A DNA stretch of 64,000 nt from Microthrixaceae bacterium (GTDB lineage Bacteria > Actinomycetota > Acidimicrobiia > Acidimicrobiales > Microtrichaceae), in assembly GCA_020845705.1 (NCBI GenBank), contig JADLFH010000020.1:1-64000 (forward strand). Reading direction: 5' to 3'. Shown here one piece after another: positions 424 to 43,168 of this stretch. A model generated the notes under the pieces. The model had not been told where the DNA came from and did not search any database. It worked only from the letters and a program-made list of their open reading frames with translations. The first letter of the stretch is position 1. Each line of letters begins with the position of its first letter. The position numbers and the translations under genes were made by a program.

Positions 424-885
424 CCGAAAGCACCGACACCACCGATGGGGTGGAATAGCTGGAACCAGGTCCGCTGTCACGACCTCACCGAGGACATCGT
501 CAAACGGGCCGACGACGCCATCGCGCGACTCGGCCTCGACAAGGTCGGATACGAGTACGTGGTAGTCGACGGCAAGCTGAGCGCCGACGAGGTCCGCTCT
601 CACGTTGGCATGTGGGCGATGCTCGCCGCGCCGCTGATGATCGGTACCGACATGGACCGCCTCGCACCCAAGGTGCTCGAAGCGATCTCGAACGAGGAGA
701 TCATCGCCATCGACCAGGACCCCCTCGGCAAGCAGGCGCGGCGTATCAAGGTGGGGGAGGGCCGCTTCTGGGACCGCACCGAGGTCTGGGCGCGACCGAT
801 CGAGGGCGGCGACTACGCGGTGGCGCTGCTCAACACCACCGGATCACACGTCGAGATCGTGACGACGCTCGAAGATGTGGGGGCC
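424..885 (+). pseudogene. GH27 alpha-galactosidase relic, internally deleted
   Basis: One open frame joins two parts of a GH27 enzyme that are normally about 190 residues apart. The first part is the canonical N-terminus (APTPPMGWNSWN, continuing to GLDKVGYEYVVVDG). The second is the late barrel and C-terminal region (SHVGMWAMLAAPLMIGTDM, then NEEIIAIDQDPLGKQ and EVWARPIEGGDYAVALLN). The region between, which carries the YLKYDNC nucleophile and the acid/base Asp, is missing at about 573-585, so the product cannot be catalytic. The frame begins upstream of the first ATG (445), with no ribosome site or signal peptide. After about 885 the homology ends and the frame runs on into unrelated sequence. 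The reaction of intact homologues is hydrolysis of terminal alpha-galactosides. A piece of the missing middle occurs at 13.7 kb. Confidence 0.85.
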
Positions 886-1119
886 GGGTCATCGAGGAGG
901 TCACCACCGGACCCATGTGCCCAGACGCGACCGATCCGACAACTGGGCAAAGGGCAGACCACCCATCGCGGCGAAACGTGGGGATCGGATTGCGAGGGAG
1001 CGGGCTCAACCCGACTTCGAGTCGAAAGAGGCGAACCGTTCGCTGATTCCCGTGACGAGGAACACACGGTCATTGCAGCGCATGTCACGGAGCCGGGCCG
1101 GTGGAACCGTGACGATGCC

Positions 1120-1140
1120 ACGGTCACAAGTTGTGACCGT
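1120..1140. promoter_or_regulatory. Operator-like palindrome upstream of the secreted protease
   Basis: A perfect inverted repeat has 10-bp arms ACGGTCACAA and TTGTGACCGT around one central base. It ends three bases before the AAGGAGG ribosome site and 17 bases before ATG 1158. A second overlapping palindrome, GTGACCGTCAC, spans 1134-1144. The short spacer argues for a protein-binding site rather than a terminator. The regulator is not identified. Confidence 0.55.
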
Positions 1141-1157
1141 CACAAGGAGGAAGTGCA

Positions 1158-2576
1158 ATGAACCGTCGGTCGATCAAGATCCGAGCCGCAGTCGTAACTG
1201 GTGCAGCCATGCTGCTCGGCACCGTCGGAGTCGTGTCCGGACCCGCGAGCGCCCAGAACGTTCAACTGCCGACCCTGGACTCCCCAGTGAGGATCCGGAA
1301 CCGAGTCGGCGAGGATGCGATCCGGGCCTTGGGTAGTCGGCTCGATGGCGTGGCCGACAGACTCAGCCTCCGTGGCGACCAGCTGGCGGAGGTGGTGCGC
1401 CGAGATCGGACCCTGTCGGTCGATGCCAGCTCCGAACTGGTGGTGCACGATGAAGCCGCTGATCATGCGCTCTCGGCTGCTTCGGCCGCCGACTGGCCGA
1501 CGACTCCGGTGTTCCCCGATATCAAGACCTTCTCGCTCCACAGCAAGTCGAGCAACGTGAAGCGGACGATATATCTCGACTTCAACGGCCACACGATGAC
1601 CGGCACAACCTGGAACACCGCGGAGAACAGGAACTCGATCACGTTGGCACCCTTCGACCTCGACGGCAAGCCATCGACGTTCACTCGCTCCGAGCTGGCG
1701 GTGATCCAGAACGTGTACCTCAGCGTTCGTGAGGACTTCGGCGTATTCGATGTGGATGTGACCACGGCGGACCCTGGAACTGCCGCCCTCGCCAAGTCCA
1801 GCGCGGGGGACGACACCTATGGGATCCGGATCGTGGTCACACCGACTGACTTCCAGGACTGCGACTGCGGAGGGGCTGCGTATCCGGGCAGTTTCGGCAG
1901 TTCGACGGGGACACCGGGGTATGTTCTTCAAGGAACCGCGAAGACCATCGCCGAGGCGGTGAGCCATGAGGCCGGCCACACCCTGGGCCTCAGCCACGAC
2001 GGCGTGACGACGAAAGACGCCGCCTGCGCGGCGGACTCCAAGAAGTGCAGCTACTACCGGGGTCACGGTGACTGGGCGCCGATCATGGGTGTCGGCTACT
2101 ACGAGCGCATCACCCAATGGAGCAAGGGTGAGTATGCGAACGCCAACAACACCCAGGACGACATTGCGATCATCAAGAAGCTGATTCCCTACGTAGTCGA
2201 CTGGGGTGGAACGATGGCCACAGCCCGGAACTACCCACTCGGCACGAAGGTGTACGCGGATCCGATCAACTGGGCCGGCGACGTCGATGCCTACTCCTTC
2301 ACCGTCTCGGCGACCCGCAGCGTCACCGTGAAGGTTGACAACTGGTACGGCGACACGGTCGACACGAACCTCAATGCGAGGATCCGACTCCTCAACTCCA
2401 GTGGTTCCGTCATCGCCACGGCGTCGCCGACGGCGACCACCAGCGCCGCTCTCACGCTGTCGCTCGCGAAGGGCAAGTACTACGTCTACGTCGATGGCGT
2501 CGGCGACGGCATCCCGTCGACGACTGGTTACAGCACCTACGGCTCCATCGGCCGCTACAACGTCAGCTTCGTCTGA
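1158..2576 (+). CDS. Secreted zinc metalloprotease (metzincin-like) with C-terminal PPC-like domain
   Basis: A 472-residue exported protein. A basic start (MNRRSIKIR) and hydrophobic stretch end near PASAQ, giving a Sec signal peptide of about 33 residues. The zinc site is HEAGHTLGLSHDG at residues 270-282. It fits the metzincin pattern HExxHxxGxxHD, with ligands His270, His274 and His280 and catalytic Glu271. The segment before it contains a DCDCGGAAYPG loop that may be disulfide bonded. From about residue 375 (GDVDAYSFTVSA through KGKYYVYVDGVGDG) the sequence resembles the bacterial pre-peptidase C-terminal (PPC) beta-domain of secreted proteases. The start is fixed by AAGGAGG at 1143-1149. 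An operator-like palindrome precedes it and a strong hairpin follows the stop, so it is probably a single-gene transcript. The substrate is unknown. Confidence 0.88.
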   Translation: MNRRSIKIRAAVVTGAAMLLGTVGVVSGPASAQNVQLPTLDSPVRIRNRVGEDAIRALGSRLDGVADRLSLRGDQLAEVVRRDRTLSVDASSELVVHDEAADHALSAASAADWPTTPVFPDIKTFSLHSKSSNVKRTIYLDFNGHTMTGTTWNTAENRNSITLAPFDLDGKPSTFTRSELAVIQNVYLSVREDFGVFDVDVTTADPGTAALAKSSAGDDTYGIRIVVTPTDFQDCDCGGAAYPGSFGSSTGTPGYVLQGTAKTIAEAVSHEAGHTLGLSHDGVTTKDAACAADSKKCSYYRGHGDWAPIMGVGYYERITQWSKGEYANANNTQDDIAIIKKLIPYVVDWGGTMATARNYPLGTKVYADPINWAGDVDAYSFTVSATRSVTVKVDNWYGDTVDTNLNARIRLLNSSGSVIATASPTATTSAALTLSLAKGKYYVYVDGVGDGIPSTTGYSTYGSIGRYNVSFV

Positions 2577-4884: not shown

Positions 4885-5691
4885 TCAAGCCGCGGTTGTG
4901 AGTAGCCGTTCCGCCCAGTGGATGCCCTGTTCGAGCGCCAATGGATAGACCGCGCGGGCCCGATCCGCATCGAAGAGGGTCATCGGATTGGCGCCGGCGT
5001 GCGCCGCGATGTCGCGGTTGGGGCGGATCAGGGTGATCCGTCTACACGGGTGGCGTTCGCGCCAGGCACGCAACTCTCGTAGCAACAGGAGTTCCGCGGC
5101 ACGACCGACGGCACCCATCCGTGCTCCCGCCAGCGGTGCCACCACGATCACCTCCTGCGCGTCGGCCGCGGCGTCGACTGAAGTCGCCGACCACATCCCG
5201 CCGTCCACATACAGCCGCCCATCGACACGGTGCGGTGGCAGCAATCCGGGCACGGCCGATGATGCCGCAACGAGATCCGCCAGCGGATAGTGGCCACCGT
5301 CGAGAATGTGGCGACGGCGGCCACGCACATAGACGGCCGACACCGACACCAGTGGGTGGGTCGCCTCCCCGAACAGGGTGCGCGCGGCATCCGCGAGTAC
5401 GCCCCGGTGGCGGCACGGAACCGCCGGGGCCTCCATTGCGGCGACATCCTCGTAGGCCAAACCGAGCGCCACCACTGAGGCCGCCCACGAGCCGGCCGAT
5501 GTTCCCAACGCCGGCGCGCTCGACACGTCGATCCCGCCGGCCGCAAGACCGTGGGCGACCCCGACGCAGTAGCCGATCCCGAACACCCCACCTCCTCCGT
5601 AGACCATGGAGAGCGGATGCGGCCCGTGGGCCACCGCAGGAGTGCCGATCACGTCGACGTTGCCGGGACGGCTGTGCTTCCAGCGATGCAC
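4885..5691 (-). CDS. Patatin-like phospholipase / acyl hydrolase, copy 1
   Basis: A 268-residue patatin-fold hydrolase, expected to cleave acyl esters of lipids with a Ser-Asp dyad. The oxyanion loop GGGGVFG is at residues 32-38, the nucleophile elbow GTSAG at 63-67 (Ser65), and the catalytic Asp in YVDGG at about 163. It starts at GTG 5691, preceded by GGAGGTGAAG. There is no signal peptide, so it is probably cytoplasmic or lipid-droplet associated. It is about 80% identical by eye to the patatin at 7605-8411, including the ribosome-site region, so the pair arose by duplication. It lies downstream of a WS/DGAT acyltransferase and a cupin on the same strand. The shared location suggests neutral-lipid turnover. 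Confidence 0.88.
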   Translation of the reverse strand: MHRWKHSRPGNVDVIGTPAVAHGPHPLSMVYGGGGVFGIGYCVGVAHGLAAGGIDVSSAPALGTSAGSWAASVVALGLAYEDVAAMEAPAVPCRHRGVLADAARTLFGEATHPLVSVSAVYVRGRRRHILDGGHYPLADLVAASSAVPGLLPPHRVDGRLYVDGGMWSATSVDAAADAQEVIVVAPLAGARMGAVGRAAELLLLRELRAWRERHPCRRITLIRPNRDIAAHAGANPMTLFDADRARAVYPLALEQGIHWAERLLTTAA

Positions 5692-5824
5692 GGGACTTCA
5701 CCTCCGGTGATCACCCCATGCGGATGGTCGGCGAAGTGCGCTTCGCTCGCAAGGACTTCGGCGGCAATTGGGGCAAGTGCCCAAGTGGCTCTGGGTAATC
5801 CCTACTGCGTGCGCAGGTGGGGTG

Positions 5825-6154
5825 TCACGCGAGATACAGCTTGCGAATCCGTTGGTGGACGACCCATCGGGTGTGGTCTCCGGCGAAGAGCTTCACCAGG
5901 ACCCCGGGGCGAAGTTCGATGGCACTACCGTCGACGAACTCGACTGTCCCCTCACCTTCGAGGACCAGGAAGATCTCGTCGACCTCGACATCGGTGTCTG
6001 TGCCTGGACCGGCTTCCCACAGGCCCAACTCGAGCCCCCGATAGGTGGTGAGGGTCTGTGATCCCGTCGCCAACAGGTCGGGAGGATCGGTGCGTTGCAC
6101 CTCCACGAAACGGAGATCGGAGGAGATCAGTCGCTCGGATGCCGCCTCGGCCAT
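5825..6154 (-). CDS. Small single-domain cupin protein (cupin_3-like)
   Basis: A 109-residue beta-barrel cupin. The core VEVDEIFLVLEGEGTVEFVDG, followed by IELRPGVLVKLFAGDHTRWVVHQRIRKLYL, matches the cupin_3/EutQ-like pattern (DE.F.VLEG.....DG...L..GD.......H..RW.VH..LRK.Y). The usual metal-binding His residues of the first motif are largely replaced, so the ligand or reaction is unclear. It starts at ATG 6154 with no ribosome site. A TAGGGT box 6 bases upstream indicates a leaderless transcript, and that box overlaps the TAG stop codon of the WS/DGAT gene. It sits between an acyltransferase and a patatin, but no lipid role is shown by the sequence. Confidence 0.8.
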   Translation of the reverse strand: MAEAASERLISSDLRFVEVQRTDPPDLLATGSQTLTTYRGLELGLWEAGPGTDTDVEVDEIFLVLEGEGTVEFVDGSAIELRPGVLVKLFAGDHTRWVVHQRIRKLYLA

Positions 6155-6160
6155 GGGGGA

Positions 6161-6166
6161 ACCCTA
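6161..6166 (-). promoter_or_regulatory. Leaderless -10 box (TAGGGT) of the cupin gene
   Basis: On the minus strand TAGGGT ends 6 bases before ATG 6154. Its first three bases are the stop codon of the upstream WS/DGAT gene (6164-6166). Confidence 0.6.
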
Positions 6167-7582
6167 GGGCCGACGGTCCAGCAGCTCCGCTGCCGCCGCG
6201 AGCATCCCGTCGCGGAAGCGCTCGGCGTCGGGGACGACATCGCGGTCGACGGTGATACCGATGCCCAACTCGCCGCAGTAGGACAGCACGCCCACGATGC
6301 AGGCGATGTTGCCTACGCCGGTCACGATCGGTTGCAGGCTCAGCAGTCGGGAACCCAGCAGGTAGAGCGGGACAGGCGATCCCGGCAGGTTCGTGACCGC
6401 GAGGTTCACGAACGGCTGGCGGGCGAGCAGCGCGGGGGCCAGGCGACGAAGCGCGGGTACCGGGATCAGGTCGACCACCGAGAACAGCGACAACATGTCC
6501 GCCGACTGCTGGGATGCCTTCCGTTCACACATGTCGGCGTGGATCCGGTCGAGCACATCGGCGGGGTCACCGAGGTCGACCGGCAGCGTTGTCACCACGA
6601 ACGAGAACGCGTTGCCACCGCCCTCGTCGGCTGCGGAGTCGCCAACTGGAACCAGCACCTTTGGCGGCCGCCCACCCATGCGGTTGGCGTTCTCTGGCCC
6701 CACCAGCCGACGGAGCGCGCCACAGACGATGCTCAACACGACATCGTTGAGCGTGACTTCACGGGAATGCGCCAGCTCTCGTAGGGGCTCCATCGGCAAC
6801 GACGACCAGACGAAATCGCGGTTCGCGCCGACGCGACCGGTGAGCTCCAGTCGTGGAGCGGGTCGGGGCCGGGATGTGAGCGAGGAAGCCAACGAGCGGG
6901 TGGCTCGGAGAGCCCGGTTGGGGTCGAGGATCCGGCGGGGATCCAGCATCCGGCGGGTCGTGTTGATCCCGAAGGCGAGCTGGCTGCGATACCGGGCGGC
7001 AAGACCCCCGACCACAAGGCCCAGAGCGTCCGGCTCGCGGGCGGCGCTCCACACCGGAATCGAGTCCGGCGCGCTCGGACCCTCCTCGAAATCCAAGAGG
7101 GCCACCGCGGCGCGCAACAACGACAGCCCGTCGGCGACCACGTGGTGGGTCCTGAGCACGACAGCGATGTCGTCGGTGCCATCGTCGAGCCCGTCGATCA
7201 GCCACATGTCCCACAACGGGTGGAGCGGGTCCAGCGGCCGGCCGATCAGGTCGCCGACGAAGGCCCTCAACCGATCAGGGTCACCAGGTTCGGGCAGCGT
7301 GGCGAAACACAGATGGCGGTCGAGGTCGAAGTCGGCGTCGTCGACCCATACCGGTCGAGCCAGGTCGAGGGGCACCTCTCGGATGCGCTGGCGGAACCGT
7401 GGCATCAGGTGAAGGCGGGAGGCCACGTGTGCTCGAAGGTCCCCTGTTCGCACCTCCCCGTCGGGGCCGCGCAACGGGGCGCCCTCGAAACGGCACAGGG
7501 CGCCGATCTGGAGTTGGGCGCCGCCGGCGGTCGCGCACCACAGCGTGGCGTCCTCCGGGCTGACGGGCTCGGTGGCGTTCAT
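6164..7582 (-). CDS. WS/DGAT acyltransferase (wax ester synthase/diacylglycerol acyltransferase), copy 1
   Basis: A 472-residue acyl-CoA-dependent acyltransferase that makes triacylglycerol or wax esters, usually at the inner membrane surface. The condensing motif HHVVADG is at residues 146-152. Other family segments are LMPRFRQRIREVPLDLARPVWVDD near the N-terminus, PLDPLHPLWDMWLIDGL before the active site, and a C-terminal VNLAVTNLPGSPVPLYLLGSRL. ATG 7582 has no ribosome site but has TAGGCT 6 bases upstream, so the message is probably leaderless. Flanked by two patatin paralogs on the same strand, it pairs lipid synthesis with lipid hydrolysis. Its length fits the family (450-500 residues). 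It is divergent in sequence from the second WS/DGAT at 13.9 kb. Confidence 0.9.
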   Translation of the reverse strand: MNATEPVSPEDATLWCATAGGAQLQIGALCRFEGAPLRGPDGEVRTGDLRAHVASRLHLMPRFRQRIREVPLDLARPVWVDDADFDLDRHLCFATLPEPGDPDRLRAFVGDLIGRPLDPLHPLWDMWLIDGLDDGTDDIAVVLRTHHVVADGLSLLRAAVALLDFEEGPSAPDSIPVWSAAREPDALGLVVGGLAARYRSQLAFGINTTRRMLDPRRILDPNRALRATRSLASSLTSRPRPAPRLELTGRVGANRDFVWSSLPMEPLRELAHSREVTLNDVVLSIVCGALRRLVGPENANRMGGRPPKVLVPVGDSAADEGGGNAFSFVVTTLPVDLGDPADVLDRIHADMCERKASQQSADMLSLFSVVDLIPVPALRRLAPALLARQPFVNLAVTNLPGSPVPLYLLGSRLLSLQPIVTGVGNIACIVGVLSYCGELGIGITVDRDVVPDAERFRDGMLAAAAELLDRRP

Positions 7583-7588
7583 CGGCGG

Positions 7589-7594
7589 AGCCTA
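7589..7594 (-). promoter_or_regulatory. Leaderless -10 box (TAGGCT) of WS/DGAT copy 1
   Basis: TAGGCT on the minus strand ends 6 bases before ATG 7582. It lies in the 22-bp gap after the patatin copy 2 stop codon. Confidence 0.65.
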
Positions 7595-7604
7595 GGGCGA
7601 GGGC

Positions 7605-8411
7605 TCAGGCCGCCGCTTTCGCCATGAGGCGTTCCGCGCAGCGCTCCCCCTGCTCGATGGCCAGGGGATAGACCGCCCTGGCGCGATCCGCGTCGAAGAG
7701 GCTGAGTGGGTTGGTGCCGGCGTGAGCCGCGATGGCGCGGTTGGGGCGGATCAGGGTGATCTGCCGGTCTGGGTGGCGCTTCTTCCAGGCTCGCAGCTCT
7801 CGGGACAGCAGCAGACCTGCGCCGCGACCGATCGGACCCATGTGCGGTCCCGCCAGCGGTGCGACCACGATCACCTCCTGGGCGTCTGCCGCGGCGTCGA
7901 TGGAGGTGACCGACCACATGCCGCCATCGACATAGAGCCGGCCGTCGATGCGGTGTGGTGGGAGCAACCCGGGTACGGCCGAGGACGCAGCGACCAGGTC
8001 CGCCAAGGGGTAGCGACCTCCGTCGAGGATGTGGCGGCGCCGGCTGCGCAGGTGCACCGCGGAGACCGACACGAGGGGGTGTGTCGCCTCGCCCCACAAC
8101 CCGCGGGCGGCGTCGGCGAGGACTCCCGTCTGGCGGCAGGGGACCGAAGGGGCCCGCATGTCGGCCACGTCGTCATAGGTCAATCCGAGTGCGACCGCCG
8201 CGGCGGCCCAGGAACCCGCGGAGGTACCCAGCGCCGGCGCTGTCACCACTTCGATGCCCCCCAGCATCAGCCCGTGGGCTATGCCGACGCAGTAGCCGAT
8301 GCCGAACACCCCACCACCGCCATAGACCATCGACAGGGGGTGGGTCCCTGCGACGAGGGCGGGTGTGCCGATGAGGTCGACGTTTCCTGGTGCGCTGTGC
8401 TCGTGGTGCAC
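7605..8411 (-). CDS. Patatin-like phospholipase / acyl hydrolase, copy 2
   Basis: A 268-residue patatin-fold acyl hydrolase with GGGGVFG, the elbow GTSAG (Ser64), an HILDGG motif near 130 and the catalytic YVDGG (Asp about 162). It starts at GTG 8411 with GGAGGTGAAG upstream, the same arrangement as copy 1. The two copies differ at about 50 positions, mostly conservative or at the ends, while all catalytic motifs are intact in both. It is the promoter-proximal gene of the minus-strand block patatin 2, WS/DGAT, cupin, patatin 1. A GH4 glycosidase is transcribed divergently from the other side of the 131-bp intergenic gap. A cytoplasmic lipase role in storage-lipid turnover is inferred from context. 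Confidence 0.88.
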   Translation of the reverse strand: MHHEHSAPGNVDLIGTPALVAGTHPLSMVYGGGGVFGIGYCVGIAHGLMLGGIEVVTAPALGTSAGSWAAAAVALGLTYDDVADMRAPSVPCRQTGVLADAARGLWGEATHPLVSVSAVHLRSRRRHILDGGRYPLADLVAASSAVPGLLPPHRIDGRLYVDGGMWSVTSIDAAADAQEVIVVAPLAGPHMGPIGRGAGLLLSRELRAWKKRHPDRQITLIRPNRAIAAHAGTNPLSLFDADRARAVYPLAIEQGERCAERLMAKAAA

Positions 8412-13530: not shown

Positions 13531-13725
13531 CCCCAAGCCCCTAGACAGGGACGATGGACCTGCATTCCGAAGTTGTCGCCTACGACCCCCTCGCGGGTCC
13601 GCTCCGCGTAATCGGCGCTCGTCGCGTCGGGGGGGCGCGCCGGCACCGAAATGCTCCATGCGCCGGCTGTCACCGGAGCGAGGCCCCTCGAGTGGGAGGT
13701 GGAGGGGCGCACCTGGGGGAACTGC
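13531..13725. other. Intergenic stretch before the GH27 scrap
   Basis: No gene or convincing regulatory signal is visible here apart from the TAGGGG-like box of the CBS gene at its left end. Together with the GH27 scrap it forms a 348-bp gap between the CBS gene and the second WS/DGAT. Confidence 0.4.
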
Positions 13726-13815
13726 TTTGGCGGGCTCGACCACGAGGAGATCGACGCTGCCACCTATGCCGAGTGGGGCGTCGACTACCTGGAGTACGAC
13801 TACTGCCACGCCACG
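13726..13815 (+). pseudogene. GH27 alpha-galactosidase scrap carrying the nucleophile region
   Basis: About 29 residues, GGLDHEEIDAATY followed by AEWGVDYLEYDYCHA, match the GH27 core (GSLGHEEIDA...FAEWGVDYLKYDNC). The catalytic nucleophile Asp is at 13798-13800. Homology stops on both sides. The frame happens to run on without a stop into the WS/DGAT start 64 bases later, which would mislead an ORF caller into a 571-residue fusion. It covers part of the segment deleted from the GH27 relic at 0.4-0.9 kb. No start, ribosome site or remaining barrel is present, so it cannot encode an enzyme. Confidence 0.78.
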
Positions 13816-13878
13816 TGGGGGATGTCTTCGACACCTTCAGCCCTGTCGTGGAGAGGCGGGTGCTGGCAGACTCCGTGG

Positions 13879-15366
13879 ATGGAACGGCTGACCGGCGCCG
13901 ACGCGGCGTTTCTCTACATGGAGAACAAGATCGTGCACATGCACGTCACCGGGGTCCTGATCCTCGACCCCTCATCGGTGGCGGGCGGCTACAGCTTCGA
14001 GAAGGTGCGCGAGCACCTCATCGACCGAATCCACCTCATACCGCCGTTTCGGCGGCGCCTCATGAGTGTGCCCCTGGGTATCGACCACCCTGTGTGGGTC
14101 GAGGATCCTGACTTCGATCTCGACCACCACCTGCACCGCCACAAGCTTCGCCGCCCGGGACGGATGATCGATCTCGCGACGTTCGTCGGCGGCTACGCGA
14201 CCCACAAGCTCGACCGATCGCGGCCTCTGTGGGACATGGTGGTGGTGGAAGGACTCCAGGGTGGGCGCATCGCCGTGGTCACCAAGATGCACCACGTTGC
14301 CGTCGATGGCGTGTCGGGGACCGACCTCATCGCGCACCTCGTGGACCTGTCGCCGGAGCCCGCACCGGCAGGTGGCGCCGACGAGCCCTTCGATCCTCAC
14401 CGGGTGCCAGGGATCCCCAGGCTGGCTGCGGGTGCAGTCATCTCCCGCGTGCGCGATCCGCTGCGGACGGTTCGCTCCTTCCGTCGCGCGGCGGCTGCGG
14501 TTGGTCGATTGGGCCAATCGGTCTTGGGCGACGGTGACGGCGCGTCGATGGCCCGGCCGTTCGAGGCCCCAAGAACGTTCTTCAACCAGTCGCTCACCCC
14601 GAGGCGGTCGGTGGCGTTCGCCACGGCGTCGCTCGATGACTGCAAGTTCATCAAGTCGACGTTCGGCACCACGGTCAACGACGTGTTCCTGGCAGCCTGC
14701 GCGGGGGCGCTCCGCACTTACCTCCAGGACAACGGGGAACTCCCCACCCGCCCACTGGTAGCCAGCGTCCCGGTGTCGGTGCACGGCCAGACGAGTGACG
14801 CTCGGGCGACCAATCAGGTCTCGAACATGTTCGTCCGGCTTCCGACCGACATTGCCGACCCCGTCGATCGCCTCCGATCGGTGCGCAGCGAGACGCGCGA
14901 CGCGAAGGCGGCCCACGGGGCGATCGGTGCCGACATGATCGGCGATGTCACCGAGTTGACACCACCGGCGATCTTCAACCTGGCCAGCCGGCTCTACAGT
15001 CGGGGTGGGCTCGCCGAGCGTCTCGCGCCGATCCACAACCTGGTGATCTCCAACGTGCCGGGACCGCCGATTCCTCTCTATGTGGGAGGTGCCCGACTGG
15101 AGGCGATCTATCCGTTCGGTCCGCTCATCGAAGGTGCCGGACTCAACATCTCGGTCCTGTCGAACATGGGGAACATGGACATCGGTGTGATCGCCTGCCC
15201 GGATGTCGCGCCGAACGTCGAGGATCTCGCCGCGGGCATCGCCGGCGGCATCTCCGAGTTGCGGAAGGCAGCAGAAGAGGAACGGGCAAGACGCACACCG
15301 GCCGAGCCTGCGGCGAGGAAGCGTTCGGCGAAGAAGCCCGCGGCGAAGAAACGGCCGGCGAGCTGA
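13879..15366 (+). CDS. WS/DGAT acyltransferase, copy 2, with basic Lys/Ala tail
   Basis: A 495-residue acyl-CoA:diacylglycerol/alcohol acyltransferase. The catalytic HHVAVDG is at residues 138-144, and the typical N-terminus MERLTGADAAFLYMEN, the RPLWDMVVVEGL element and the C-terminal NLVISNVPGPPIPLYVGGARL are all present. ATG 13879 is chosen because it gives the family's standard N-terminus; the longer reading frame upstream crosses a GH27 scrap. No clear ribosome site is visible. The last 26 residues (RTPAEPAARKRSAKKPAAKKRPAS) form a histone-like basic tail not needed for catalysis, which may contact acidic lipid-droplet surfaces or nucleic acid. Its stop codon abuts the stop of the convergent SDR gene with no gap. 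Confidence 0.9.
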   Translation: MERLTGADAAFLYMENKIVHMHVTGVLILDPSSVAGGYSFEKVREHLIDRIHLIPPFRRRLMSVPLGIDHPVWVEDPDFDLDHHLHRHKLRRPGRMIDLATFVGGYATHKLDRSRPLWDMVVVEGLQGGRIAVVTKMHHVAVDGVSGTDLIAHLVDLSPEPAPAGGADEPFDPHRVPGIPRLAAGAVISRVRDPLRTVRSFRRAAAAVGRLGQSVLGDGDGASMARPFEAPRTFFNQSLTPRRSVAFATASLDDCKFIKSTFGTTVNDVFLAACAGALRTYLQDNGELPTRPLVASVPVSVHGQTSDARATNQVSNMFVRLPTDIADPVDRLRSVRSETRDAKAAHGAIGADMIGDVTELTPPAIFNLASRLYSRGGLAERLAPIHNLVISNVPGPPIPLYVGGARLEAIYPFGPLIEGAGLNISVLSNMGNMDIGVIACPDVAPNVEDLAAGIAGGISELRKAAEEERARRTPAEPAARKRSAKKPAAKKRPAS

Positions 15367-38979: not shown

Positions 38980-39786
38980 TCAGAGTGTCGGCGCGCGTCC
39001 AACCGCCAAGAGCTGCTTGCCCGTGTCTGCCAGCTCGGGAACCGATGCGAGGTCGCGTTCGAGCTCGATGAGTTGATCGGGATAGCCGGCGTGCGCGGCG
39101 ACCCATTCGCGGCGACCCAGGGTCGTGAATGCCACGAGCAGTCCACCGACGCCCACGTCCAGCAGTCCCGCGGCGCCGAACGCCTCTTGCAGCCTGAGCG
39201 AGTCGAGCAAGTGGTGTTCCACCGCCAGGTCGTCACGAACCCAACAAGCCCGGCGTGAGCGAGCTCGCTCCATGGCCTGGCCTACGTCGCCGGCGCGGAT
39301 CAGCTCTTGGACGAGCGCGACGAGGGAGTCGCACAACACCACCAGGTGGCCGCCGGGCTTCACCCAGCGCGCCATGCGGGCGATGGCGGCGTCGGGATCG
39401 TCGGTGAACTGGACAGAGCCCATCGCCATGACCATCGCCGCCTCGCCCGCGGGTAGCTCGGCATCCTCGATCCGACACCGATGGAGCGTGAACCGATCCG
39501 CCATCCATCGGGCTGAAGCGACATCCGCCATGCGTGGGCTCGGCTCGATCCCGATCACGTCATGTCCCATCGCCACCAGCCGACCTGCCAGGCGACCCGT
39601 CCCGCAGCCTGCATCGATGATGGTCGCGGGAGCGGATGGGAGCAGCGACGTGACCACCTCCCACGCCAGGTCGTCGTAGATGCGGCGGTGCGGGGCGTTG
39701 AACTCGTGGTCGTACGCGTCGGCCAACGGGTCGTAGAACTCCGCTGGATCAACGGTGCGATGCGTTGTGGTCAGGATGTCGCTCAT
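38980..39786 (-). CDS. Class I SAM-dependent methyltransferase
   Basis: A 268-residue methyltransferase. Motif I IIDAGCGTGRLAGRL binds SAM, GIEPSPRMADVA is the acidic second strand, and MAMGSVQFTDD then VKPGGHLVVLCD are motifs IV and VI. The N-terminus FYDPLADAYDHEFNAPHRRIYDDLAW resembles small-molecule and sugar methyltransferases (Methyltransf_11/25). ATG 39786 overlaps the radical SAM gene stop as ATGA, and GGAGGGAG lies upstream, so it is translated with that gene. It is the last gene of a four-gene coupled operon with two Alg13/14-like glycosyltransferase halves. The substrate is probably a product of that operon, by inference. Confidence 0.85.
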   Translation of the reverse strand: MSDILTTTHRTVDPAEFYDPLADAYDHEFNAPHRRIYDDLAWEVVTSLLPSAPATIIDAGCGTGRLAGRLVAMGHDVIGIEPSPRMADVASARWMADRFTLHRCRIEDAELPAGEAAMVMAMGSVQFTDDPDAAIARMARWVKPGGHLVVLCDSLVALVQELIRAGDVGQAMERARSRRACWVRDDLAVEHHLLDSLRLQEAFGAAGLLDVGVGGLLVAFTTLGRREWVAAHAGYPDQLIELERDLASVPELADTGKQLLAVGRAPTL

Positions 39787-40967
39787 TGGCGGGATCTCCC
39801 TCCGGTGGCACGGAGCCGCTCCAAAGAGTTGTGCATCAACGATGCGGGGCGCCAGCGGAGATTCAGGCTGTAGTTGCTGCCACAGCCGACGCACTCCTTT
39901 CGGAAGAAGCGCTCATGCTCGTCGCGGTACTCGGTGGAGTCGACGATCGTTCGGAGGCTCTGTTCGCGAACCGACATGGATGGGTCGTGTCCCCAGCACC
40001 CGCCGACCTGGCCCTGGGAGTGGATCATCAACTTCAGTTGCGACTCGGCGCAGGGCAGCGTGGCTTGCAGGCGATCCTCGAAGTGGTCGATGACGTAGCG
40101 GAGGTCTGCATGAGCCGGTAGCCACCGGCGGTCCATGCGAGCCATCGCGTTCACCTCTTCGAGGGCGGAGCGAAGCTCGTCGCGGTCCACCTGGGCTTCG
40201 CCGGTCACGAGGTCTGTGCGGAAGAGGAACGTGGTGTCGGTCGCGAGGTTCAGGTAGAGGCGCACACCCAGACGCTGTGCCAGGCGGGCAATCTCCGGCA
40301 GCACGCGGGCGTTGGAGCGCATCACGGTGAAGTTCATCCGCACCGCGAGCTTGTAGCGGTCGCGTTGCTCGATCACGCCCTGGAGGTGGCGGATAGTGGT
40401 CTCGAAGGAGCCCTCGACGCCGCGGATCTCGTCATGGGTTGCCGCATCGGGTCCGTCCACGGAGATGTTGAAGCTCCGCACTCCCGCGGCGAGGATGCGT
40501 GTGAGCATCCCGGGGTCGAGGTGGATCGCGTTGGTGTTGAGGTGGATGTCGCGGATGCCCCGGTTCGCCGCGTACGCCACCAGGCCCACTGCGTCGCGTC
40601 GGACCAGTGGTTCGCCGCCGGTGAAGTTGACCTTGAGTATTCCGAGGTCGGCGAGCTGATCGATGACGTTGCACCACTCGTCGGTACGTAGCTCCCCGCG
40701 GGTCGTGGTCGTCCAACATCCGCAACTGCGGCAGCGGAGGTTGCAGTTCTCCGTGAGGAACAGCTCCGCGACGAGCGGTCGCACGTGCAAGCGCGGTGCA
40801 ACGTGTTCTTTCAGCGTGAGGAGTCCGAAGAAGCCGGCGAGTCGAGTCGTGCGTCGCGCTCGATCGAGTCCGCTCCATCGGTCGAAGCCCACAGGTGCCT
40901 CCGCAGGCAGCCTCGCTCCGGCGCGTGGCATCTCGATGGCCACCGCGGAGCCCGCTGCTGGGTTCAT
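39783..40967 (-). CDS. Radical SAM/SPASM enzyme
   Basis: A 394-residue radical SAM enzyme. The [4Fe-4S] motif TENCNLRCRSCGCW gives Cys75, Cys79 and Cys82 (CxxxCxxC). NFTGGEPLVRRD is the SAM-binding GGE segment, HLNTNAIHLD and NISVDGPD follow, and the barrel is complete. The C-terminal SPASM-type region has further cysteines: LPCAES, VGGCWGHD and KECVGCGSNYS. No short precursor peptide gene is visible in the operon, which argues against a standard RiPP maturase, although SPASM enzymes also act on sugars and proteins. ATG 40967 overlaps the Alg13-like stop by four bases. The reaction is unknown. Confidence 0.85.
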   Translation of the reverse strand: MNPAAGSAVAIEMPRAGARLPAEAPVGFDRWSGLDRARRTTRLAGFFGLLTLKEHVAPRLHVRPLVAELFLTENCNLRCRSCGCWTTTTRGELRTDEWCNVIDQLADLGILKVNFTGGEPLVRRDAVGLVAYAANRGIRDIHLNTNAIHLDPGMLTRILAAGVRSFNISVDGPDAATHDEIRGVEGSFETTIRHLQGVIEQRDRYKLAVRMNFTVMRSNARVLPEIARLAQRLGVRLYLNLATDTTFLFRTDLVTGEAQVDRDELRSALEEVNAMARMDRRWLPAHADLRYVIDHFEDRLQATLPCAESQLKLMIHSQGQVGGCWGHDPSMSVREQSLRTIVDSTEYRDEHERFFRKECVGCGSNYSLNLRWRPASLMHNSLERLRATGGRSRQ

Positions 40968-41482
40968 CGGCTCGTCAACTCGACCTTCAGTTCGTGGAGA
41001 AGGCGACTCCACGCACGGTCGAGGTCGGGCTCTGGGGGCAGGGGGCGGGTTGCCAGCAGATGCTGCTCCACATCGCGGTGGTCTGCCACCGCTGCTTCGA
41101 GCGCCAGGGTCAACTCCGCGGGGTCGCCCCAGAGCCCCACGGCGGGTGCATGTTGTTGCTCTCGACGAAGGAAGTGCACCTGATGATCGTTGCCCATCTC
41201 TCCACGAGCTGCCTCACGAGCCACGCAGATGGGCACCTTGCCCAAGCGCTGGACCAGCCGAACGGTGTTTCCGGCATGGGTGATGACGACATCGGCCTCG
41301 GCCATCATCCGCCGCAGCTCGCTGGGAACCACGGCGCGGGCCGATGCGCAGGCGAGGGGAACATCCGATGTCCCACGTTGCACGAACACGTCGTGGGTCA
41401 AGCTCAACGGTGCCACTGCGTGGAGGAGGCGGTCGAAGGGCCAGCGCCCCATGCCGACTGTGACGACGATCTTCAGGATCAC
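40964..41482 (-). CDS. Alg13/PssE-like glycosyltransferase subunit (donor-binding half)
   Basis: A 172-residue GT-B half-protein. The N-terminus KIVVTVGMGRWPFDRLL matches the opening of Alg13, PssE and EpsF-type subunits. MMAEADVVITHAGNTVRLVQRLGKVPICVARE, continuing GEMGNDHQVHFLRREQ, is the UDP-sugar binding region (equivalent of HAG.GTI....K...PR....E..DNHQ.E). Such proteins work only as a complex with an Alg14-like membrane partner, which is encoded immediately upstream. GTG 41482 overlaps the partner's stop (GTGA). The sugar transferred is usually GlcNAc, glucose or GlcA in known pairs; here it is undetermined. Confidence 0.85.
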   Translation of the reverse strand: MILKIVVTVGMGRWPFDRLLHAVAPLSLTHDVFVQRGTSDVPLACASARAVVPSELRRMMAEADVVITHAGNTVRLVQRLGKVPICVAREAARGEMGNDHQVHFLRREQQHAPAVGLWGDPAELTLALEAAVADHRDVEQHLLATRPLPPEPDLDRAWSRLLHELKVELTSR

Positions 41483-41949
41483 ATCAGTTCCCCCACCATC
41501 ACCGTTCGCAGGTGGATGCCCACACGTTCGTCGTGTTGGACGGCGACCAGCGTGGCGTTGCGCGCGCAGATCCGCGCTGCGAGCCCCTGTGTGTCGATGA
41601 TGTTCAGTGTCTCGACCCAAACGCGAGGTATGCGCAGCACTGCGGCCACGAGGAACCACGGGACCGCAAGGGCTGTGCCCGCGGATAGCAGGAGATCAGG
41701 TCGGCTTCGCCGGAGCGACCGCCACGCAAAGAGCGACTCGGCCAGCAGTGTGTGCGGTTTGCGCAGCGCAGGTTCGGGCCGAAAGACGACCTCCTCGCCT
41801 TGGAGCTCTTCGCATGTGTCGAGCGAGTCCACGACCACGTGACGCCTCCTCCCGCTGTAGGCGCGGGCAAGTGCCAACACGTCCAACAGCACGCCTCCCG
41901 CGCTGCTGACCACCAGCAGTCCGCCTCCTCTCGTCTCCCCAGTGGCCAT
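41479..41949 (-). CDS. Alg14/PssD-like glycosyltransferase subunit (acceptor/membrane half)
   Basis: A 156-residue partner of the Alg13-like protein. LLVVSSAGGVLLDVLALARAY is the Alg14 N-terminal loop. LLLSAGTALAVPWFLVAAVLRIPRVWVETLNIIDTQGL corresponds to the STG...V...A..lG....E........S segment, partly hydrophobic and membrane-facing. ATG 41949 has AAAGGACGG upstream. It is the first gene of the operon Alg14, Alg13, radical SAM, methyltransferase, all joined by four-base overlaps. The divergent DegT aminotransferase starts 100 bp away. Family pairs extend lipid-linked glycans on the inner face of the membrane. Confidence 0.83.
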   Translation of the reverse strand: MATGETRGGGLLVVSSAGGVLLDVLALARAYSGRRRHVVVDSLDTCEELQGEEVVFRPEPALRKPHTLLAESLFAWRSLRRSRPDLLLSAGTALAVPWFLVAAVLRIPRVWVETLNIIDTQGLAARICARNATLVAVQHDERVGIHLRTVMVGELM

Positions 41950-42004
41950 CACCCGTCCTTTCGCGCCCCTTGGCGCGTTTCCGTGGCACAACCGATTCCG
42001 ACCC

Positions 42005-42010
42005 TATGAT
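42005..42010 (+). promoter_or_regulatory. -10 box (TATGAT) of the DegT aminotransferase gene
   Basis: TATGAT gives a transcript start near 42017. The GGGAGG ribosome site (42036-42041) then lies in a short leader before ATG 42050. No convincing -35 is seen. Confidence 0.55.
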
Positions 42011-42049
42011 GGCAGAGGCGCGGAGTTGACCGGCTGGGAGGCAACCGAG

Positions 42050-43168
42050 ATGCGTGACGATGCTGTAGGAATTCCGCTGGTCACACCGGCGGGTTGGGGG
42101 GCGGGCGATGCGGAGGTGGCCCCGTTGGCGGCCGAGTTGGTGGGCATCCTCACCACCGGTCGGTATCGGGTCGGCGACGGGTTCGCGGCCGAGGCGGCTC
42201 GTCTGCTGGCGCAGGAGCTCCAGCTGCCGTCCGATTGGCGCGTCGTGACCTTTCGTTCCGGAACCGATGCGCTCGCCCGGGCTCTGGCGGGCTACGGAAT
42301 CGGCGCGGGTGACCGTGTGGGTGTACCCGACCTCGCCTACCACGCGGTTGGCGGAGTGGTGTTGATGGCGGGGGCCACGCCTGTCGCCCTCGACGTGCGC
42401 GACGACGACTGGAACCTCGATCCCCGTGCCGTGGCCGAGACGGTCGAGTCGCTCGACGCCGTAATCGCGGTCGACAACTACGGCACTCCATGCGACCGGG
42501 TGACGCTAGGGGGGCTCTGCCGCCAGGCCGGGGTGCCGTTGATCCTCGACGCCTGCGAGAGCCTCGGCTCGGCACATCCCGACGGCGGCCCGGCTTCATC
42601 GGTCGACGCGGTGGCGGTCAGCTTCAGCTTCACCAAACCCGTCCATGCCGCCGGCGCAGGGGGGGCACTGGCTGTTCCCGCCGGTGTTGCGGAGAGAATC
42701 CTCGCCTCCGAGGAGCTTTTGGCGCGCCAGGTGCAGCTGCCCGAGCTGAACGCTGCGGCGCTGGTCCACTCGTGGCCGAAGTTGACCACCAACGTGTTGC
42801 GGCTTCGACAGCAGTACCGCGCGTACCGCGAGCTGCTCGAGCCCATGGGTCTGCAAGCCCAGGTGGAACATGTGCGCGGCACGCGGCTCCACGCGCCGTT
42901 CCTGTTGCCCAACTCGGTGAGTGCTGAGGCGCGCGGAGCACTTGTGGCCGGCCTCGCCCAAGCCGGGATCGAGGCACGGCCGATGTTCCCGTCACAGTCG
43001 CGGCTGTTGGGGTTGGGAGAGCCACCGCCGGTCTCGGCGCAGGTCGACCGCAGGGTGTTGTGCCTGCCCACCGGTGCGGGATTGGCTGTCACCGATGTCG
43101 CCGGCCGGGCCGCCTCGGTGATCGAGGGGTGGCTCGACGCACAAACCCCGGCGAGCTTGACCGCCTGA
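42050..43168 (+). CDS. DegT/DnrJ/EryC1/StrS-type PLP aminotransferase
   Basis: A 372-residue sugar-aminotransferase-like enzyme. VVTFRSGTDALARALAGYGIGAGDRVGVPDLAYHAV is the PLP phosphate-binding start (SGT.AL...L). VDNYGTPCD and LILDACESLGS hold the cofactor Asp, and FSFTKPVHAAGAGGALAV carries the Schiff-base Lys196. Family members mostly transaminate nucleotide-linked keto sugars. GGGAGG precedes ATG 42050, which is chosen over an upstream ATG at 41942. The gene is divergent from the Alg14/13-radical SAM-methyltransferase operon and plausibly supplies an amino sugar to it. Its stop abuts the convergent PlsC-like gene. Confidence 0.85.
   Translation: MRDDAVGIPLVTPAGWGAGDAEVAPLAAELVGILTTGRYRVGDGFAAEAARLLAQELQLPSDWRVVTFRSGTDALARALAGYGIGAGDRVGVPDLAYHAVGGVVLMAGATPVALDVRDDDWNLDPRAVAETVESLDAVIAVDNYGTPCDRVTLGGLCRQAGVPLILDACESLGSAHPDGGPASSVDAVAVSFSFTKPVHAAGAGGALAVPAGVAERILASEELLARQVQLPELNAAALVHSWPKLTTNVLRLRQQYRAYRELLEPMGLQAQVEHVRGTRLHAPFLLPNSVSAEARGALVAGLAQAGIEARPMFPSQSRLLGLGEPPPVSAQVDRRVLCLPTGAGLAVTDVAGRAASVIEGWLDAQTPASLTA

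What the first reader, a model, noticed from the sequence alone, without database searches (positions are those of the whole stretch)
38980..43168. Alg14-Alg13-radical SAM/SPASM-methyltransferase operon with a divergent DegT aminotransferase
Four minus-strand genes are joined by four-base ATGA/GTGA overlaps (41479-41482, 40964-40967, 39783-39786), so they are translated together. Alg14/Alg13-like halves form a membrane glycosyltransferase complex. It is combined with a radical SAM enzyme with SPASM-like C-terminal cysteines and a SAM methyltransferase. A DegT-family PLP aminotransferase, typical for amino sugars, starts 100 bp away in the other direction. No precursor peptide gene is visible. 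The combination suggests biosynthesis or modification of an unusual glycoconjugate, and I do not know a described pathway with this set.
Basis: partly seen in the sequence, partly recalled or inferred. Interest (0 to 1): 0.72.

Follow-up and report, generated by a model that had tools for sequence, protein, structure and literature searches.

The report
Conserved radical-SAM aminosugar glycosylation cassette
Five neighbouring genes in an uncultured actinobacterium belong to a rare, self-contained set of six enzyme functions that recurs in scattered soil actinobacteria and probably builds an amino sugar, methylates it, attaches it to an acceptor and alters it with a radical enzyme; I found no described pathway with this set.

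Summary
In detail: four minus-strand genes with three 4-base overlaps (Alg14-like, Alg13-like, radical SAM, methyltransferase MTb) and a divergent DegT aminotransferase. Three details change. The DegT start is 42050. The radical SAM enzyme has the four-cysteine 'twitch' pattern, not the seven-cysteine SPASM one. The Alg14 half lacks the GGH histidine found in Alg14, MurG and Agl24.

The genes are a real functional unit. All 13 compared loci carry Alg14, Alg13, radical SAM, MTb and DegT within about 12 kb, in unrelated surroundings: two genera of the window's class, Micromonospora, Actinoplanes, Actinoallomurus, Kribbella, Nocardioides and a Solirubrobacterales MAG. Most also hold a second methyltransferase (MTa) and an NAD-dependent sugar-enzyme (SDR) half fused to DegT; Micromonospora loci consist of exactly these six genes. 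The window lacks MTa locally, but its genome carries one on another contig. Among 395 class genomes, radical SAM, MTb and MTa each occur only in the same two. No precursor-peptide gene is conserved.

Best reading: SDR and DegT make a 4-amino sugar, probably from UDP-glucuronate; the methyltransferases methylate it; the divergent split glycosyltransferase transfers it; the radical enzyme oxidises or rearranges it. Substrate, acceptor and order of steps are inferred. New variant of a known kind.

The parts
41479..41949 (-). Alg14/PssD-like glycosyltransferase half, 156 aa, divergent subfamily (GGV at 41890-41898 where canonical members have GGH)
40964..41482 (-). Alg13/PssE-like glycosyltransferase half, 172 aa; start overlaps the Alg14 stop by 4 bases (GTGA); motifs VTVGM and HAGNTVR instead of VTVGT and xxGPG[TA]V
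39783..40967 (-). Twitch-type radical SAM enzyme, 394 aa; start overlaps the Alg13 stop by 4 bases (ATGA)
40722..40745 (-). Radical SAM cluster motif C75-X3-C79-X2-C82, invariant in 13 sequences
39882..40052 (-). Auxiliary Fe-S ligand set C306-X12-G-X4-C324 ... C359-X2-C362, invariant in 13 sequences
38980..39786 (-). Class I SAM methyltransferase MTb, 268 aa; start overlaps the radical SAM stop by 4 bases (ATGA)
42050..43168 (+). DegT/DnrJ/EryC1/StrS aminotransferase, 372 aa, PLP lysine K196 present; stand-alone here, fused to an SDR in 11 relatives
41950..42049 (.). 100-base intergenic stretch between the two divergent transcription units

Best explanation
This is a dedicated glycoconjugate cassette. 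Shown: Alg14, Alg13, radical SAM, MTb and DegT travel together in 13 of 13 loci; MTa is present in 12 of the 13 genomes (11 in the cassette; one unlinked, here on contig C22), and an SDR half is fused to DegT in 11. Inferred, in order: (1) the SDR oxidises a UDP-sugar at C4, most likely UDP-glucuronate, with or without decarboxylation to a 4-keto pentose; (2) DegT transaminates the keto group to a 4-amino sugar; (3) MTa and MTb methylate amine or hydroxyl groups; (4) the split Alg14/Alg13 glycosyltransferase transfers the sugar to an acceptor at the membrane; (5) the twitch radical SAM enzyme abstracts hydrogen from a sugar carbon and its auxiliary cluster takes an electron, giving an oxidised, decarboxylated or epimerised sugar. 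In this genome the cassette is split: MTa is on another contig and the SDR was not identified.
For: Co-localisation in 13/13 loci with unrelated flanks; six Micromonospora genomes hold exactly the six genes at one genomic site. Identical distribution of radical SAM, MTb and MTa in 2 of 395 class genomes; MTa was found in the own genome by this family logic and is its only full-length match there. MTa is fused to Alg13 in four lineages. Two distinct SDR types are fused to two DegT subfamilies, as expected for consecutive steps. PLP lysine and SDR YxxxK invariant. UDP-glucuronate leads: the SDR model is closest to MoeE5 (solved with UDP-glucuronate) and UDP-glucuronate decarboxylase; a UDP-glucuronate decarboxylase gene lies beside the cassette in Kribbella and Nocardioides; the radical SAM model is closest to BlsE, which acts on a glucuronide (PMC3715490); WelK, a glucuronosyltransferase, is among the best glycosyltransferase models.
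Against: No product, substrate or acceptor is known. Each glucuronate lead is weak alone: radical SAM sequence similarity stops at the core domain, and the best SDR fold matches are 17-24% identical. The Alg14 half lacks the essential histidine, so its acceptor, or even its activity, is open. No SDR ortholog was found in this genome, which is 75% complete. Most cassettes show no flippase, polymerase or transporter nearby, so the destination is unknown.
Confidence: 0.5

Rival explanations
1. Blasticidin-like order: the Alg14/13 pair first transfers glucuronate to an acceptor, the radical SAM enzyme then decarboxylates or oxidises the attached glucuronide, and SDR/DegT and the methyltransferases act on the bound sugar.
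For: The best fold match of the radical SAM model is BlsE (E 6.8e-14, TM 0.71 by target length), also the best phmmer match. BlsE decarboxylates cytosylglucuronic acid (PMC3715490). WelK, a glucuronosyltransferase, is among the best glycosyltransferase models.
Against: BlsE is not a close relative: 57 bits against a cut-off of 400, similarity confined to the core domain, and SkfB scores higher with the family profile. The SDR half resembles enzymes acting on free UDP-sugars.
Confidence: 0.22
2. It is a decoration module of an ordinary capsule or exopolysaccharide repeat unit, made on undecaprenyl diphosphate.
For: PssD/PssE similarity; bacterial sugar transferase PF02397 beside the cassette in the Solirubrobacterales MAG and a relative of it in Actinoallomurus (cluster C8); in the own genome MTa lies near a gene I read as a polysaccharide flippase.
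Against: No such genes were recognised among the neighbours examined around the Micromonospora, Actinoplanes and window cassettes. The GGH loop proposed to contact the acceptor diphosphate is altered in 13/13 (PMC8993221).
Confidence: 0.17
3. RiPP maturation: the twitch radical SAM enzyme modifies a peptide and the rest tailors it.
For: Twitch and SPASM enzymes are common in RiPP pathways; SkfB is the top hit of the profile search.
Against: No short ORF is conserved beside the cassettes (611 candidates compared; shared ones are fragments of longer genes or limited to two or three loci). Pfam shows no extra peptide-binding domain on the radical SAM protein. The partners are sugar enzymes.
Confidence: 0.05
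4. Fortuitous neighbours without a common role.
For: Patchy distribution; DegT belongs to different subfamilies in different lineages.
Against: 13/13 co-localisation in unrelated contexts, Alg13-MTa fusions, correlated divergence (Mantel p 0.0005-0.02), identical phylogenetic profile of the unlinked MTa.
Confidence: 0.02

Closest known systems
PssD/PssE (Cps14F/Cps14G) and Alg14/Alg13 split glycosyltransferases
   Same: Two-gene split GT-B-type glycosyltransferase in the same order, about 150 + 165 aa.
   Different: GGH to GGV in Alg14 and HAGNTVR in Alg13 in all 13; 44 bits against cut-offs of 110 and 120. The own genome has two other PssD genes (C12, C70) with the canonical GGH.
BlsE, cytosylglucuronate decarboxylase (blasticidin S)
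   Same: Closest fold in the PDB; its pathway also joins UDP-glucuronate, a radical SAM enzyme and a methyltransferase (PMC3715490, PMC5572114).
   Different: 22% identity, core domain only in sequence; far below the TIGR04466 cut-off.
BtrN and other twitch-domain radical SAM enzymes (MoaA, SkfB)
   Same: One auxiliary cluster site; four Cys ligands as in BtrN, an aminocyclitol dehydrogenase (PMC6231123, PMC9012708).
   Different: BtrN was not recovered by sequence; the substrate here is unknown.
ArnA/ArnB and CalS9/CalS13 aminopentose pathways (recalled from knowledge, not tested)
   Same: UDP-glucuronate decarboxylation followed by DegT 4-amination; CalS13 is among the PDB hits of the relatives' DegT half.
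   Different: As far as I know those pathways have no radical SAM enzyme and no Alg14/13 pair; here SDR and DegT are fused in most lineages.

Membership tests
Radical SAM superfamily | CX3CX2C motif and GGE motif in a radical SAM core | tested here: met
   C75-X3-C79-X2-C82 and G117-G118-E119 invariant in 13 sequences; Pfam 2.2e-22
SPASM domain proteins | Seven-Cys motif CX9-15GX4C-gap-CX2CX5CX3C-gap-C | tested here: not met
   Only CX12GX4C and CX2C are conserved, four Cys; motif as given in PMC6231123
Twitch domain proteins | Truncated SPASM domain with ligands for one auxiliary cluster | tested here: met
   Four invariant C-terminal Cys by sequence; the cluster itself cannot be tested here
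BlsE family (TIGR04466) | Score above the curated cut-off of 400 bits | tested here: not met
   57.5 bits
Alg14 / MurG / Agl24 | GGH motif with essential His | tested here: not met
   GGV in 13 of 13 cassette Alg14 sequences, GGH in 5 of 5 canonical actinobacterial PssD sequences; His essential per PMC8993221
PssD/PssE equivalogs (NF041549, NF041548) | Score above cut-offs of 110 and 120 bits | tested here: not met
   44.3 and 43.7 bits
DegT/DnrJ/EryC1/StrS aminotransferases | Family profile and PLP-binding lysine | tested here: met
   125.9 bits against 19.8; Lys invariant in 13 sequences
DegT sugar aminotransferases | Activity on a keto sugar nucleotide | not testable with these tools
   Best PDB relatives are mostly sugar aminotransferases
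RiPP biosynthetic clusters | Precursor peptide gene nearby | tested here: not met
   No short ORF conserved across cassettes
Wzx/Wzy-type polysaccharide loci | Flippase, polymerase and initiating sugar transferase in the locus | tested here: inconclusive
   None recognised beside the window cassette or in Micromonospora loci; a PF02397 sugar transferase does occur in some relatives

The most novel reading that the evidence does not exclude
A previously undescribed pathway in which a split Alg14/13-type glycosyltransferase that has lost the supposedly essential acceptor-side histidine hands an amino sugar to a non-canonical membrane acceptor, and a twitch radical SAM enzyme then remodels the sugar while it is attached: radical chemistry on a lipid- or acceptor-linked glycan.
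Probability: 0.25. Interest if true: 0.78.

Novelty: new variant of a known kind. Interest (0 to 1): 0.58.

Why it matters
The cassette is compact, bounded in Micromonospora to six genes, and present in cultured strains (M. tulbaghiae DSM 45142, M. humi DSM 45647, Kribbella monticola, Actinoallomurus spadix), so a new sugar and its pathway could be found by gene deletion and mass spectrometry. It offers a twitch radical SAM enzyme tied to sugar metabolism, and a glycosyltransferase subfamily that departs from the best-studied catalytic motif of Alg14 and MurG. It also shows that one member of such a cassette can sit on a different contig and still be recognised by its phylogenetic profile.

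Tried and rejected
RiPP reading: no conserved precursor-like short ORF in or near the cassettes. Defence-system reading: PADLOC matches are generic radical SAM and methyltransferase domains. Plasmid-borne cassette: no match in 72,556 plasmid records. SDR in the own genome: only weak superfamily matches on contig C62 and none for the Micromonospora-type SDR. Substrates of the methyltransferases from PDB relatives: only generic hits. Literature for the gene combination: nothing relevant. The BtrN structure paper is not held, so its ligand spacing was not verified and is not used as evidence. Two of the extra Micromonospora loci (L097, L099) proved to be copies of L042 and L037 and are not counted twice.
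Full report
Observation. The window belongs to a metagenome-assembled genome of 2.9 Mb in 193 contigs, 75% complete. I set the DegT start at the ATG at 42050. Domain searches give a radical SAM core, a class I methyltransferase, a DegT aminotransferase and, below curated cut-offs, PssD-like and PssE-like glycosyltransferase halves.

Is it a unit? A scan of 84,980 species genomes returned the same-genus MAG and ten more loci whose radical SAM protein is 59-67% identical to the query: Micromonospora, Amorphoplanes (Actinoplanes), Actinoallomurus, Kribbella, an uncultured Nocardioides and a Solirubrobacterales MAG. A class-level search added one more genome, G394. In all 13 compared loci, window included, the radical SAM gene lies within about 12 kb of Alg14, Alg13, MTb and a DegT gene. 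The flanks differ between lineages. In six Micromonospora genomes the six genes sit as a block at one genomic site. The gene is rare: 2 of 395 genomes in the class and 8 of 281 in the Micromonospora family.

Eleven of the 13 loci carry a second methyltransferase, MTa, next to Alg13 or fused to it (four lineages), and in the same eleven DegT is the C-terminal half of a 675-698 aa protein with an NAD-dependent epimerase/dehydratase (SDR) half. The window and its same-genus relative lack both locally. A search of the window's own genome with MTa found one full-length copy, 50% identical, on contig C22. It occurs in none of 40 relatives, and among 395 class genomes MTa, MTb and the radical SAM gene each hit only the same two genomes. 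I read this as a split cassette. The same-genus relative G001, itself 75% complete, shows no MTa. The SDR was not identified in the own genome. The SDR half of G394 is not recognisably the same family as that of the other lineages, and the DegT proteins fall into two groups, so SDR and DegT were joined, or replaced as a pair, more than once; this fits consecutive steps. Identity matrices of the six families are correlated (Mantel p 0.0005-0.02).

The radical SAM enzyme. Thirteen sequences share C75, C79, C82 plus C84, C306, C324, C359 and C362. C306-X12-G-X4-C324 fits the first half of the SPASM motif; the rest is reduced to CX2C. A full SPASM domain needs seven cysteines (PMC6231123), so this is a twitch domain. 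The AlphaFold model (pLDDT 80.5, pTM 0.84) matches BlsE best, then SkfB, PqqE, SuiB, DesII and MoaA. Sequence similarity covers only the core, so the reaction cannot be assigned by homology. In BtrN, PqqE and SuiB, which all perform two-electron oxidations, the auxiliary cluster is the likely electron acceptor (PMC9012708). Oxidation of a sugar carbon, alone or with decarboxylation, is my preferred guess.

The glycosyltransferase. Canonical actinobacterial PssD proteins, including two from the own genome, read S[ST]GGH; all 13 cassette Alg14 proteins read GGV. Alg13 has VTVGM and HAGNTVR where the two canonical partners compared have VTVGT and GPG[TA]V. The GGH histidine is reported in all Alg14, MurG and Agl24 homologs and is essential for activity; the loop is proposed to contact the acceptor diphosphate. 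The same paper notes that MurG-like proteins of pseudomurein makers also lack it and suggests a different acceptor sugar (PMC8993221). The cassette enzyme is therefore a distinct subfamily, probably with another acceptor.

Which sugar? Four leads, each weak alone, point to UDP-glucuronate and its pentoses. The SDR model (pLDDT 92.7) is closest to MoeE5, solved with UDP-glucuronate, and to human UDP-glucuronate decarboxylase. A UDP-glucuronate decarboxylase gene flanks two cassettes (366 bits to the human enzyme in Nocardioides; a clear sequence relative in Kribbella). BlsE acts on a glucuronide (PMC3715490). WelK is a glucuronosyltransferase. With DegT this suggests a 4-amino-4-deoxy sugar, methylated by MTa and MTb.

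Verdict. The cassette is a real, conserved, self-contained set that I could not match to a described pathway. Its parts are from known families. What it makes, what that is attached to and the order of steps remain inference. I file it as a new variant of glycoconjugate/aminosugar biosynthesis.

Limits. The genome collections were sampled, the loci were all found through the radical SAM protein, gene calls in relatives come from my own codon-usage script, and the host genome is incomplete, so absence statements about it are weak. The literature library holds open-licence papers only.

Noticed in passing
L057 (own genome contig C22), 9989-10777 (-): The unlinked MTa gene overlaps the end of a gene I read as a wax-ester-synthase/DGAT-like acyltransferase and lies 1.2-3.5 kb from genes I read as a GNAT and an O-antigen-type flippase (names by eye; the adjacent FAD oxidoreductase is confirmed by Pfam).
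   Followed up: partly
own genome G000: C12:6-434 and C70:81622-82050: Two further PssD-like genes with the canonical GGH motif, so the window pair is a third, divergent set.
   Followed up: yes
L039:15583-16542 and L041:16574-17575: A UDP-glucuronate decarboxylase gene beside the cassette in both Kribbella and Nocardioides.
   Followed up: partly
L034 and L036: In Actinoallomurus the cassette lies downstream of a penicillin-binding protein, an FtsW/RodA protein and a GT2, and upstream of a sugar transferase-like gene and two ABC transporters.
   Followed up: no
L048:5330-8192: In G394 the cassette runs on into genes for an arylmalonate-decarboxylase-like protein, a sulfotransferase and an FrhB/FdhB-like protein.
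   Followed up: no
window 445-1161, 4885-8411 and 13651-15366: By eye: two similar patatin-like ORFs flanking an acyltransferase-like ORF, and two separate ORFs resembling glycoside hydrolase family 27; not checked with profiles.
   Followed up: no
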